Of a stretch of 64,000 bases of DNA, positions 42,813-48,362 are shown one piece after another. Origin of the DNA: Gemmatirosa kalamazoonensis (lineage in GTDB: Bacteria; Gemmatimonadota; Gemmatimonadetes; Gemmatimonadales; Gemmatimonadaceae); assembly GCF_000522985.1 (NCBI RefSeq), contig NZ_CP007128.1:3146220-3210219 (forward strand), read 5' to 3'. Position numbers and translations under genes: made by a program. Numbering within the stretch: the first letter of the stretch is position 1; each line of letters starts with the position of its first letter. The notes under the pieces were generated by a model that had not been told where the DNA came from, searched no databases, and saw only the letters and a program-made list of their open reading frames with translations.

Positions 42813-43235
42813 CTACTTTCCGTCGTCGTCCGACAGGAACTCGGCGCGCAGCCACGTCGCCCACTGATCGGCGAGCGCCGCGCGACAGCGTGCGGCCACC
42901 ATGGGCGCCGCGGAGCCGGCGCCGTAGAGCGAGCGGGCCGCCGCGCACTGCAGATCGCGCGCACGCCGCCACGCATCGCGGCTCTGCGTCACGAGCCGCA
43001 GCGTCGTCGCACGCTCGCGACCACGCAGCCGGGCGCGCACGCTGTCGTACGTCGCGGCGGCGGCGGCCTCGCGATGCTTCGCCGCGTCCGACCAGCAGCC
43101 GGTGAGCTCGAGCTGCGTGCTCGCCTCGGCGCAGGGCGCGTCGCCGTCGCGCGCCGGCTGCGCCCGGAGCGGCGCGGCGCCGAGCGCCAGAGCGAAGAGC
43201 GGGCCGAGGTGGGCCATGCGTGCGCGCGAGCTCAT
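42813..43235 (-). CDS. LprI-like (DUF1311) exported lysozyme-inhibitor family protein
   Basis: A 140-residue protein from ATG 43235, which overlaps the lysozyme gene stop (ATGA). The N-terminus contains a signal peptide (AHLGPLFALALGAAPLRAQ). The mature part begins with the LprI N-terminal pattern CAEASTQLELTGCWSDAAKHRE, then AATYDSVRARL, with further Cys (LQCAAARS, ARCRAAL) in the second half. LprI of mycobacteria inhibits lysozyme. The direct coupling to a GH24 lysozyme gene supports an inhibitor or immunity role here, as inference. Confidence 0.75.
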   Translation of the reverse strand: MSSRARMAHLGPLFALALGAAPLRAQPARDGDAPCAEASTQLELTGCWSDAAKHREAAAAATYDSVRARLRGRERATTLRLVTQSRDAWRRARDLQCAAARSLYGAGSAAPMVAARCRAALADQWATWLRAEFLSDDDGK

Positions 43236-44092
43236 GGCAGTGGTACCCGCCACGACGGCGCGTTGTTCATCAGCAGCGGCGGCTGCGGCGCCTGCCGACG
43301 CATGCGCTCCTTGTCCTCCAGCTCCTGGAGCTCCTGACGGGCGGGCCCGAGGAACAGGTCGGCCTCGTCCTGGCGGCGCGTCGTGAGGCCCTTCAGCACC
43401 ACGCCGCCCGACTTGTTCCACTTCTTGAACTGCGCCTCGACGTCGACGATCGCCGCGCGACGCACGGCGGGCGTGCCGCACCGGTAGCTGCCGTCGTTGA
43501 TCCGCTTCAGCAGCGTGGACGCGCTGAAGTTGCCGACGCCCACGTTGAACGTGAACGACACGAGCGCGTCGAACTCGTCCTGGTCGAGGTTGCGCGTGAC
43601 CTTGTCGCGGACCGCCTGCTCGAACCGCTGCGCGTCCTGCGCCAGCACCTGGTCGGCCTTGCGCGCGAGCATGTCGACCTCGACACGCACGGCGTCGTCG
43701 AGCACACCGTCGACGATGGCCTGCTGCGCGGCGTTGAGCTGCGCGTACGTCTTGCCGCCGAATTGCTTTCGCCCGGCGACGATGTCGCGCCCGAGCTCCG
43801 CCGCCTTGGTCTGGAGCTGGTCGAAGCCCGTCACCGCCACCGCGGCGCGCTCGAGGTAGAACGTCGACTTCGTCTTCGACCACTTGCGCTCCTTCACGCT
43901 CGACGACCACGCAGGGTCGGCGCGCGCCGCCTTCAGCAGGAAGCTCGGCCACTTGTGCGTGGGGTGCACGAGATGCCCCACGCCGAACGTCGCGTATCCC
44001 GAATCGTCGTCGTACAGCCCGTCGATGAGCGCCTCGTGGGCGATGAGCGCCGCGAGCCCGTCGGCGCTGAGGGTGAGGTTGCTCTGTGCCAT
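43232..44092 (-). CDS. GH24 (T4-type) lysozyme with an insertion domain
   Basis: A 286-residue peptidoglycan hydrolase. The catalytic triad is visible with exact T4-lysozyme spacing: Glu20, Asp29 and Thr35 in HEALIDGLYDD then GYATFGVGH. The C-terminal lysozyme half begins about residue 165 (DALVSFTFNVGVGNFSASTLL) and ends with the family motif GLTTRRQDEADLFLG. About 110 residues lie between these halves, longer than in phage enzymes. No signal peptide is present, so export would need holin-like or contractile-injection delivery. AGGAG precedes the ATG. No phage genes are nearby. The next gene, an LprI-like protein, is translationally coupled. Confidence 0.83.
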   Translation of the reverse strand: MAQSNLTLSADGLAALIAHEALIDGLYDDDSGYATFGVGHLVHPTHKWPSFLLKAARADPAWSSSVKERKWSKTKSTFYLERAAVAVTGFDQLQTKAAELGRDIVAGRKQFGGKTYAQLNAAQQAIVDGVLDDAVRVEVDMLARKADQVLAQDAQRFEQAVRDKVTRNLDQDEFDALVSFTFNVGVGNFSASTLLKRINDGSYRCGTPAVRRAAIVDVEAQFKKWNKSGGVVLKGLTTRRQDEADLFLGPARQELQELEDKERMRRQAPQPPLLMNNAPSWRVPLP

Positions 44093-44170
44093 GGTGTCTC
44101 CTGGGGATCGGACGGCGACGGGACCGACGTGGGTGCCGACTCACCGTACGAAACCCGCGCCGGGATCCGC

Positions 44171-46666
44171 TCAGTGGCGCTCGACGTCGCGGACGTTGTC
44201 CTTGTGGTTGCGGTCGATCAGCAGGTGGTACGGGTCGATCCCCGCGCGCTCGGGCGGCCGGTCCACGACGACCTCGATGCGCGACGTCGCCGCGGTGATG
44301 CGGTGCTTGCCGAGGTAGAGCGGCTCGCCGAGCGCATCGTCCTTCGCCTTCTTCGGGCCGAACACGCCGACGGTCACGTAGTCCCCCATCGGGATCGGTC
44401 TCTCGGCGCCCGCCGTGTCGGCGCGCACCTTCTTCGCCGCGACGCCGAGCGTCACCACCCACTTGCCGTCGGCGCGCCGGACGGCGGTCGCGGTGTCGGT
44501 CTTGAGATCCCAGAGCGTGATCGTCTCGAACAGGTCCTTCACGAGGTACTGCAGCGAGTCCGGCGTGACGGCGCGGAACTCGGCGAGGAGATCCTTCGTC
44601 GTCGTGAACGGCGCCTCCTGGAACGCGACCTTGCGCACGTACGACGACAGCGCGCGGTTCATCGCGTCCTCGCCGATGTAGTCGCGCAGCGCGTACAGCG
44701 TGAGCCCGCCCTTGCCGTAGCGGATGTAGCCCTGGCCCTCGACGAGGGCGAGCGGCAGCTCGCGCTTGTCCTCGGTGCCGCGGCCGCGCAGGTACCAGTC
44801 GAGCTCCGCGCGCAGATACTTCTCCATCGCGTGGCGCCCGTACTCCTTCTCCGTCGTCATGAGCGCGGAGTACTCGGCCATGGACTCGACGAGCATCGTC
44901 TCGCCCTGCACACCGGCCGGCATCACCTGGTGTCCCCACCACTGGTGCGCGACCTCGTGCGCGGTGACCATGAACGGCAGGTCGCGCCCCGCGTCGTCCT
45001 TGTCCGCCTCGGTGATGAAGCCGATCCCCTCGGAGAACGGGATCGTGTTCGGGAACGACTGCGCGAACGTCGCGTAGCGCGGAAACTCGAGGATGCGCAC
45101 CCCGAACTGGTAGAGCAGGTGCTCGAAGCCGAGCGTGTCGAGCGTGATGAGCGACACCCACCACGCGAGCAGCAGCACGTGGCCCACCGCCTTGTTGTTC
45201 ACCACCGTGTGCACCACGAACGCGAGCAGCGCGTACTGCAGCACGAACGGGAACTCGATGAGGAACACGGTGCGGAGGTACACCGACAGCTCGTACTCGT
45301 GGTACCCCTTCACCGTCTGCACGGCGATGCCGGCGAGGATGAGCACCGCCTGCAGCACGGCCATGGCGCCCACGAGCCCCGCCGCGCGACCCACGAGATG
45401 CAGCGCCGGGCTCACGGGCAGCGCGTCCTGGATCTGGTCCGCGCCGAGCTGTCGCTCGCGCCACACCAGCTCGCCCACGAACGTCGTGAGCAGGATGACG
45501 AAGAACAGCCCGAAGCCGCCCACCACCGCGTCGGCGATGAGATAGGTGCGCGGATAGACGGTGACCTGGTCCATGCGATTCGCGAACCAGGCGGACATGA
45601 TCACGTTCACCGCGCCGACGGTGGCGATGGCGAGGAAGCTCACCTGCCGCGTCATCGACGCGAACGCGAGCCGCGTGACGGCCAGGAGCTGGCGGCCGCG
45701 CGATGCCGCACCGCTCACGCCGGCCCACGCCGTCGCCAGTCGCTCGGCCGCCGCGTGCGCCGCGCGCGAGCCGATCGTGATCCCTGGACGATCGTCGCCG
45801 CCGAGGCCACCGGGCACGCCGGCGACGGCGAGCTTCGGGTGCCGCCAGCGCAGCCCGAGCGACGCCGGCTGCGCGCGGAAGCGGAACGCGCCCAGCGTGA
45901 GCGCGACGAGCCCACCGGACACGGCGAGCCACGCGAGCCGGTTCCACAGGACGAATCCGGAGAGCGGCACGAGCAGCGTGTTCTTGTCGGCCACCGTCCA
46001 GTAGCGCGTGGCGAGCGTGAACGGCTGGATGCCGAACGGATCGAGCAGGGCGCCGATCCAGTCGTTGCGCAGGTCGCGCGTGAGCTGCCCCGTGACCGAC
46101 CACGCGACGAGGAGGAAGATCCCCATCGTGTAGACGACGAACTGGTTGCGCGTGAGCGCGCCCGCCGCGAAGAACGCCGCGCTGATGAACAGCACGTTGG
46201 TCAGGCCTAACAGCAGGAACGGGTGCAGGTAGTTCGCGAGGTGGATCGGCAGCATCTTGTCGTGGTCGATCCACGGCATCACGCTGCCGACGAGCGCGCC
46301 GAGCGGGATCGCGAGATACACGACGAGCATGGCGACGAACGCGCCGCCGAACCGGCCGGCGAGGTAGCCCACTCGACTGATGCGCGTCGTGAACAGCAGC
46401 TCGTGCGTGCGGGTCTGGAAGTCGCGCAGGATCGACGTGCCGACGAGCGCCGAGGTGATGACCTGGCCGATGGCGGTGAGGATGATCGTCGTGTTCGCGA
46501 GCACCCACGGTGCGTTCTTCAGCACCTTGCCGCGGCCGCCGCCGATCTCCACCGCGTCGGACGACAGGAAGCCGAACGCGAGCAGGAACAGGATCGCGAA
46601 GTACAGCCACGTCGCGGGGCGGCGCAGCTGATACCGGATCTCGAAGAAGAGAATCTGTCGCAGCAC
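44171..46666 (-). CDS. ABC-2 permease fused to M1 aminopeptidase, internally shortened
   Basis: An 831-residue membrane protein. The N-terminal half has many transmembrane helices of an ABC-2 permease (LFFEIRYQLRRPATWLYFAI through LLLAWWVSLITLDTLGFEH). The C-terminal half is a peptidase M1 catalytic part with HEVAHQWWGHQ and the downstream Glu of VESMAEYSALM. From memory, proteins of this fused type usually run near 1,200 residues; here the later membrane helices and the M1 N-terminal domain with GxMEN are missing between QFG and RILEFPRYATFAQSF (near residue 522, about 45100). The cognate ABC ATPase is encoded 12 bases upstream. Confidence 0.82.
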   Translation of the reverse strand: MLRQILFFEIRYQLRRPATWLYFAILFLLAFGFLSSDAVEIGGGRGKVLKNAPWVLANTTIILTAIGQVITSALVGTSILRDFQTRTHELLFTTRISRVGYLAGRFGGAFVAMLVVYLAIPLGALVGSVMPWIDHDKMLPIHLANYLHPFLLLGLTNVLFISAAFFAAGALTRNQFVVYTMGIFLLVAWSVTGQLTRDLRNDWIGALLDPFGIQPFTLATRYWTVADKNTLLVPLSGFVLWNRLAWLAVSGGLVALTLGAFRFRAQPASLGLRWRHPKLAVAGVPGGLGGDDRPGITIGSRAAHAAAERLATAWAGVSGAASRGRQLLAVTRLAFASMTRQVSFLAIATVGAVNVIMSAWFANRMDQVTVYPRTYLIADAVVGGFGLFFVILLTTFVGELVWRERQLGADQIQDALPVSPALHLVGRAAGLVGAMAVLQAVLILAGIAVQTVKGYHEYELSVYLRTVFLIEFPFVLQYALLAFVVHTVVNNKAVGHVLLLAWWVSLITLDTLGFEHLLYQFGVRILEFPRYATFAQSFPNTIPFSEGIGFITEADKDDAGRDLPFMVTAHEVAHQWWGHQVMPAGVQGETMLVESMAEYSALMTTEKEYGRHAMEKYLRAELDWYLRGRGTEDKRELPLALVEGQGYIRYGKGGLTLYALRDYIGEDAMNRALSSYVRKVAFQEAPFTTTKDLLAEFRAVTPDSLQYLVKDLFETITLWDLKTDTATAVRRADGKWVVTLGVAAKKVRADTAGAERPIPMGDYVTVGVFGPKKAKDDALGEPLYLGKHRITAATSRIEVVVDRPPERAGIDPYHLLIDRNHKDNVRDVERH

Positions 46667-47911: not shown

Positions 47912-48284
47912 ATGTCGCCCAACAGCCATCTCACCGGTCTGCAGCTCCTCGACGTCGGCGGCTCGGCGAGCGCCGACGCGCGCACACATCTCGCCGCGTG
48001 CCCCGTGTCGTGCGCGGCTCGACGCGGCGCGCCGGCGCGACGCGGCGCTCGCGCACGCCCTGCGCGCCCTCGAGGACCGGTCGCCCGGACGGAGCCGCGC
48101 CGAGGAGGACGCGCGCCTGCACACGATCATCGACCGCATGCTGACCAGCCTGCGCGCGGCGGCGAGCGCCGGCGCGTCGCCGCCGTCCGCGATGACCACC
48201 GCGCGCACGGGCGAGGGCCCCCGGGGGTTCCACCCCGGCCCGCGGAGCTGGGTGATCCTCGGCGCGCCGGGGCTGGCGCGTTAG
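47912..48284 (+). pseudogene. Zinc-finger anti-sigma-like gene with a frameshift
   Basis: ATG 47912 starts SHLTGLQLLDVGGSASADARTHLAACPV, the start of a zf-HC2-type zinc finger (H then CxxC). The frame then breaks near 48010-48025, in GTGTCGTG. The expected continuation (CRARLDAARRRDAALAHALRALEDRS to the stop at 48284) lies in another frame. Loss of two bases from a TG run would explain it. The restored protein would be about 124 residues with no membrane helix and no sigma factor beside it. Confidence 0.5.
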
Positions 48285-48362
48285 GCGGCGCGGCCCGCGC
48301 GGGGAACCGGACGTGATGGATCGGGTTACTCTCCGGGTCCGCTCGTCGAATCCCCGGTCGCC

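What the first reader, a model, noticed from the sequence alone, without database searches (positions are those of the whole stretch)
42813..44092. Lysozyme translationally coupled to an LprI-like exported inhibitor
A GH24 lysozyme with an exact E-D-T triad and no signal peptide overlaps (ATGA) a predicted exported LprI-family protein. A cytoplasmic peptidoglycan hydrolase plus a periplasmic inhibitor is the layout of interbacterial effector-immunity pairs. No phage or secretion genes are adjacent, so this may be an orphan effector cassette.
Basis: inference. Interest (0 to 1): 0.68.

Follow-up and report, generated by a model that had tools for sequence, protein, structure and literature searches.

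The report
Unlinked type VI lysozyme-immunity pair
Two overlapping genes in a soil bacterium most likely encode a cell-wall-cutting toxin for stabbing rival bacteria and the protein that protects the owner; the closest known relative of the pair sits inside the genes of the injection machine itself, and this genome carries such a machine on another replicon.

Summary
Window 43232-44092 (-) encodes a 286-aa GH24 muramidase with the E20-D29-T35 triad, a strong Shine-Dalgarno site and no signal peptide. It overlaps by ATGA an exported four-cysteine LprI/DUF1311 protein (42813-43235, -). The only full-length homologue found (Candidatus Nitrospira defluvii; 38-40% identity, sharing a rare ~80-residue insertion) is also followed by an LprI gene. 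That pair lies inside a type VI secretion (T6SS) operon: tssA-tssB-tssC-hcp-lysozyme-lprI-tssE-tssF-tssG. The window pair is unlinked, but the same genome has a T6SS on a 1.1-Mb replicon (Hcp, VgrG, PAAR, TssA/B/C/F/K, ClpV, TssL, TssM). In three phyla, GH24 genes with LprI directly downstream occur in 4 of 33 GH24-bearing genomes. All 4 have a T6SS sheath gene, against 5 of the other 29 (Fisher p=0.003). Best explanation: a T6SS-delivered periplasmic muramidase with a periplasmic LprI immunity protein, detached from its secretion locus. LprI immunity for T6SS wall hydrolases is already proposed in Enterobacterales, so this is a new member of a known kind, in an effector subfamily I found no description of. 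Secretion, toxicity and inhibition are inferred, not shown.

The parts
43232..44092 (-). GH24 muramidase, 286 aa, 31.6 kDa, pI 8.6, no signal peptide: proposed T6SS effector
42813..43235 (-). LprI/DUF1311 protein, 140 aa, exported, four invariant cysteines (35, 47, 97, 117): proposed periplasmic immunity protein
43232..43235 (-). ATGA stop-start overlap (translational coupling)
44098..44102 (-). Shine-Dalgarno AGGAG of the lysozyme gene
43988..44035 (-). catalytic segment E20 (44033-44035), D29 (44006-44008), T35 (43988-43990)
   Evidence: invariant in ten GH24 proteins
43727..43966 (-). approximate extent of the insertion (residues about 43-122) between the catalytic hairpin and the helical lobe, shared only with the N. 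defluvii homologue among relatives found
43161..43235 (-). predicted signal peptide of the LprI protein (residues 1-25, by eye)

Best explanation
The two genes are an antibacterial type VI secretion effector-immunity pair that is not linked to its secretion locus. The muramidase is made in the cytoplasm, where there is no substrate, and is loaded on the T6SS carried by the 1.1-Mb replicon, most likely as Hcp-bound cargo. It is injected into the periplasm of neighbouring Gram-negative cells, where it cuts the N-acetylmuramic acid-N-acetylglucosamine bonds of peptidoglycan. The coupled LprI protein is exported by Sec, stabilised by two disulphides, and binds the muramidase in the periplasm, so that kin cells survive injected or leaked enzyme. 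Shown here: gene layout, families, catalytic triad, predicted folds, the colinear pair in a T6SS operon of N. defluvii, and the T6SS genes in the genome. Inferred: enzymatic activity, Hcp loading, secretion, toxicity, disulphides, and inhibition by LprI.
For: GH24 fold with intact triad. AF2 model pLDDT 93.1, best PDB match 6et6 muramidase, Z 17.1, rmsd 2.6 A over 136 residues. Exported LprI with ATGA coupling. The N. defluvii homologue covers residues 3-266 including the insertion, followed by LprI, between hcp and tssE/tssF. P0002's best match in a set of LprI proteins is the N. defluvii one, ahead of those of its own family. T6SS in the window's genome: TssC 461 bits; Hcp, TssB/C, TssK, TssF, TssA, ClpV-like, VgrG and PAAR at C3 ~955-975 kb; TssL and TssM at C3 ~1,007.8-1,012.5 kb; single Hcp. 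GH24+LprI pairs go with T6SS genomes: 4/4 against 5/29, Fisher p=0.003, or p=0.011 without the window genome. Literature: LprI proteins as proposed immunity of T6SS wall hydrolases (PMC8867033; PMC12135965).
Against: No T6SS gene lies next to the pair; it is on a different replicon from the T6SS. No PAAR, VgrG, Rhs or other recognised T6SS delivery domain was seen in the lysozyme, so the loading route is a guess. Only one other insertion-bearing homologue was found. LprI proteins are promiscuous: one sits in a S. meliloti urease operon, and Salmonella ScwA has no role in lysozyme resistance (PMC7933661). In G029 the paired GH24 may carry its own lipoprotein signal, so not every GH24-LprI pair need be a T6SS pair. 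The statistic treats related genomes as independent.
Confidence: 0.84

Rival explanations
1. A domesticated phage endolysin left by a decayed prophage, next to an LprI gene by accident.
For: The closest families by profile are phage endolysins (PHROG 7), with 939 phage records matched.
Against: No phage gene was seen next to the pair; flanks are topoisomerase IB, an ABC transporter and gyrB. No phage record aligns over 80% of it. The same two-gene order recurs in N. defluvii inside a T6SS operon. Among 80 GH24 loci from genomes, LprI lies directly downstream only in N. defluvii and the Terriglobia MAG.
Confidence: 0.04
2. An endogenous wall-remodelling enzyme with an LprI regulator, working on the cell's own peptidoglycan.
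For: LprI-domain ScwA controls levels of Salmonella's own wall hydrolases (PMC7933661). The paired GH24 of G029 may have its own lipoprotein signal. In the window the pair follows an ABC/M1-peptidase gene by 78 nt and may share its transcript.
Against: The window lysozyme has no export signal, so it could not reach the wall by Sec. GH24 genes are rare in the class (5 of 295 genomes), not what a housekeeping enzyme would show. The nearest relative is in a T6SS operon.
Confidence: 0.07
3. An effector-immunity pair of another export route (extracellular contractile injection system, type IV killing system or vesicle release).
For: Effector-immunity pairs exist in other killing systems, for example the Xanthomonas type IV system (PMC10933484, listed).
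Against: No PF04984 sheath in the genome. A T6SS is present, and the relative is inside a T6SS operon. The type IV route was not searched for.
Confidence: 0.05

Closest known systems
GH24 gene and LprI gene in the T6SS operon of Candidatus Nitrospira defluvii (FP929003.1 ~1,892,633-1,893,915)
   Same: Same gene order, 40% and 32% identity, same insertion in the lysozyme, no signal on the lysozyme, signal on LprI
   Different: Embedded between hcp and tssE of a T6SS operon; 53-bp gap instead of ATGA overlap; no experimental work found
Salmonella Dublin SPI-19 SED_RS06235/SED_RS06230 (PMC8867033)
   Same: Predicted T6SS peptidoglycan hydrolase with a downstream signal-peptide LprI protein in a bicistronic unit
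   Different: Effector has LysM and a predicted transglycosylase domain, not this insertion-bearing GH24; encoded in the T6SS island
Pantoea agglomerans pv. betae lysozyme-like T6SS effector (Carobbi et al. 2022; cited in PMC12135965, paper not held)
   Same: Lysozyme-like T6SS effector; cited there for LprI as a domain implicated in toxin antagonism and T6SS immunity
   Different: Sequence not compared here; details not read
Acinetobacter prophage muramidase 6et6 and phage endolysins (PHROG 7)
   Same: GH24 catalytic fold (Z 17.1)
   Different: No insertion; phage lysis genes as neighbours where annotated (holin, lysis protein), not LprI

Membership tests
GH24 muramidase (PF00959) | profile match over curated cut-off and E-D-T catalytic triad | tested here: met
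   101.7 bits vs 22.3; E20, D29, T35 invariant
LprI/DUF1311 (PF07007) | profile match over cut-off, exported, conserved cysteines, three-helix fold | tested here: met
   42.4 bits vs 22; Cys 35, 47, 97, 117 invariant in four; best PDB match 3gi7 DUF1311, TMt 0.82 but Foldseek E only 0.09; export judged by eye
T6SS effector-immunity pair | toxin gene directly coupled to an exported cognate protein | tested here: met
   ATGA overlap, signal on LprI only
T6SS effector-immunity pair | encoded in or near T6SS genes, or T6SS in the genome | tested here: met
   not linked, but T6SS on C3; homologous pair inside a T6SS operon
Cargo effector with a recognised T6SS delivery domain (specialised effector) | PAAR, Rhs, VgrG or similar domain in the effector | tested here: not met
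   Pfam shows only PF00959; not required of Hcp-cargo effectors (own knowledge)
T6SS effector-immunity pair | T6SS-dependent secretion, toxicity, and neutralisation by the immunity protein | not testable with these tools
   needs bench work
Phage lysis cassette | holin/spanin or other phage genes nearby | tested here: not met
   ORFs and Pfam of the flanks
Extracellular contractile injection system cargo | phage-type sheath (PF04984) in the genome | tested here: not met
   no match

The most novel reading that the evidence does not exclude
The insertion-bearing GH24 lysozymes with LprI are a distinct, undescribed T6SS effector family shared by Nitrospirota and Gemmatimonadota. The insertion would serve as an Hcp-loading or target-range module, and LprI proteins broadly would be T6SS immunity proteins for lysozyme-fold toxins (GH24, pesticin-like) in phyla where T6SS effectors are almost unstudied.
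Probability: 0.35. Interest if true: 0.65.

Novelty: new member of a known kind. Interest (0 to 1): 0.55.

Why it matters
T6SS effectors of Gemmatimonadota and Nitrospirota, abundant in soils and nitrifying communities, are hardly known. This pair gives a testable effector in a genome with a plasmid-borne T6SS and a single Hcp. It also gives the LprI domain, whose role is disputed (lysozyme inhibitor or wall regulator), a concrete partner enzyme to test.

Tried and rejected
Scans with P0001 alone found no relative in genome contigs or viral contigs; an alignment was needed. Plasmid search with P0002 found nothing. Plasmid search with the N. defluvii lysozyme gave only partial, phage-like matches. 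Nitrospirota (295 genomes) and Acidobacteriota (347) gave no further insertion-bearing GH24. Viral contigs gave only ordinary endolysins. LprI neighbours on plasmids were mostly unrelated to lysozymes. The LprI tree is poorly resolved, with long branches, and cannot show that paired LprIs form one clade. Fold search for the LprI model had no hit at E<=0.001. The Pantoea paper was not held. No paper was found on Gemmatirosa plus T6SS by name, though a plasmid T6SS survey lists a Gemmatimonadaceae plasmid of 1,106 kb, subtype i4b (PMC9113992), which matches the size of C3.

Full report
Observation. The lysozyme gene (43232-44092, minus strand) starts 5 nt after AGGAG, encodes 286 aa and belongs to PF00959 with 101.7 bits. 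The catalytic residues E20, D29 and T35 are invariant in an alignment with nine other GH24 proteins. There is no room upstream for a signal peptide: the open frame is 302 aa in all. Its last codons overlap the start of the LprI gene (42813-43235) by ATGA. The LprI protein (PF07007, 42.4 bits) begins with a basic, hydrophobic segment. Its four cysteines are invariant among four relatives, fitting a disulphide-bonded periplasmic protein. Both genes have the codon-position GC of real genes here.

Surroundings. Upstream on the same strand, with a 78-nt gap, lies an ABC-permease/M1-peptidase gene preceded by an ABC ATPase gene; downstream is a convergent topoisomerase IB gene; recF-like and gyrB genes follow. 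Nothing phage- or secretion-like was seen next to the pair.

An unusual lysozyme. Compared with phage endolysins, the protein carries about 80 extra residues between the catalytic hairpin and the helical lobe (about 43-122), plus a small second insertion and a C-terminal tail. The AF2 model is confident (pLDDT 93.1). Its core matches solved GH24 muramidases (6et6, Z 17.1, rmsd 2.6 A over 136 residues). Whether the insertion alone has a known fold was not tested.

Relatives. GH24 is rare in the class (5 of 295 genomes) and LprI occurs in 29 of 295. In G029, from another family, the two are again adjacent and in the same order. A scan of bacterial and archaeal species genomes with a GH24 alignment returned 80 loci. 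Only one, Candidatus Nitrospira defluvii, matches the full length including the insertion (38% over residues 3-266, E=1e-47; 40% in the global alignment). Screening these loci for LprI found it directly downstream in just two: N. defluvii and a Terriglobia MAG.

The decisive locus. In N. defluvii the order on one strand is tssA-like, tssB-like, tssC, hcp (PF05638), lysozyme, LprI (PF07007, 56.7 bits), gp25/tssE (PF04965), tssF (PF05947, 794 bits), tssG-like (tssA, B and G were named by eye from position and sequence, tssC by PF05943). The relative of the window pair is thus inside a T6SS operon, next to hcp. P0002's best match in a test set of LprI proteins was the N. defluvii LprI (64 bits), above all LprIs of its own taxonomic family; the tree itself is too weak to settle co-inheritance.

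T6SS in this genome. TssC matches with 461 bits on contig C3 (1,106,233 bp). Around it are Hcp, TssB, TssK, TssA, TssF, a ClpV-type ATPase, VgrG and a PAAR-like protein followed by a gene with an AHH nuclease match. TssL (DotU) and TssM (IcmF), with a second TssK-like match, lie about 35 kb away. TssE, TssG and TssJ were not identified by profile; the gaps where TssE and TssG would be expected gave no match in the frames tried. A published survey of plasmid T6SS lists one Gemmatimonadaceae plasmid of 1,106 kb with subtype i4b (PMC9113992), so this T6SS is probably already on record. No PF04984 sheath was found, and Hcp is single-copy.

Association test. Across Gemmatimonadota, Nitrospirota and Acidobacteriota samples, 33 genomes with a GH24 gene were tested for the T6SS sheath gene. 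All four with LprI directly downstream have it (G000, G029, G295, G296); 5 of the 29 others do. Fisher p=0.003, or 0.011 without the window genome. Relatedness is not corrected for, and the G296 sheath match is partial at a contig end. A further hint: on a Thioclava plasmid an LprI gene follows tssH in a T6SS cluster, and the next gene has a sub-threshold pesticin-like (lysozyme-fold) match.

Mechanism. The most likely reading is a T6SS muramidase effector, kept harmless in the cytoplasm by lack of substrate, delivered into the periplasm of neighbours, with LprI as periplasmic immunity. Hcp loading is suggested by the hcp neighbour in N. defluvii and by the absence of other delivery domains; it is an inference. 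Caution on LprI: family members also occur in unrelated contexts (S. meliloti urease operon), and Salmonella ScwA has no role in lysozyme resistance, so the domain alone does not prove inhibition.

Novelty. LprI as immunity to T6SS wall hydrolases is already proposed for Salmonella Dublin and noted for WHIX effectors. NCBIfam has no family over cut-off for the lysozyme. I therefore file the pair as a new member of a known kind, with an undescribed effector subfamily, and an unlinked location that resembles the orphan T6SS effector described in Aeromonas jandaei.

Noticed in passing
L196:19206-19844 (N. defluvii, ~1,918.2-1,918.8 kb) and L129:5539-6285 (Terriglobia GH24): Both proteins begin with copies of a motif like TPGP(L/I)G(L/I)N; one lies downstream of T6SS VgrG/PAAR-like genes, the other is the LprI-paired GH24. 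It could be a T6SS sorting or spike-docking tag.
   Followed up: partly
L159:3914-5058 (Thioclava plasmid): LprI gene directly after tssH, followed by a gene with a weak pesticin/lysozyme-like match (PF16754, E 0.0014, below cut-off): a possible further LprI-lysozyme T6SS pair.
   Followed up: partly
G000:C3 ~954.8-956.1 kb (L042:4850-6148): PAAR-like gene followed by a gene with an AHH nuclease match near the VgrG gene of this genome's T6SS: likely another T6SS effector.
   Followed up: partly
window 48204-48302 (+): The only tRNA call (Arg, anticodon GCG, 99 nt) does not look like a tRNA by eye and may be a false positive.
   Followed up: partly
window 44171-46666 (-): ABC-2 type permease fused to an M1-peptidase domain, with its ATPase gene upstream; may be co-transcribed with the pair.
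   Followed up: no
L046:7686-10457 (G219): Large 923-aa protein with a GH24 domain in the middle, in a genome with a T6SS sheath gene but without LprI directly downstream of it; possibly another effector type.
   Followed up: no
L161:3444-3863 (S. meliloti): An LprI-family gene sits inside a urease operon, showing that the family is not tied to lysozymes.
   Followed up: no
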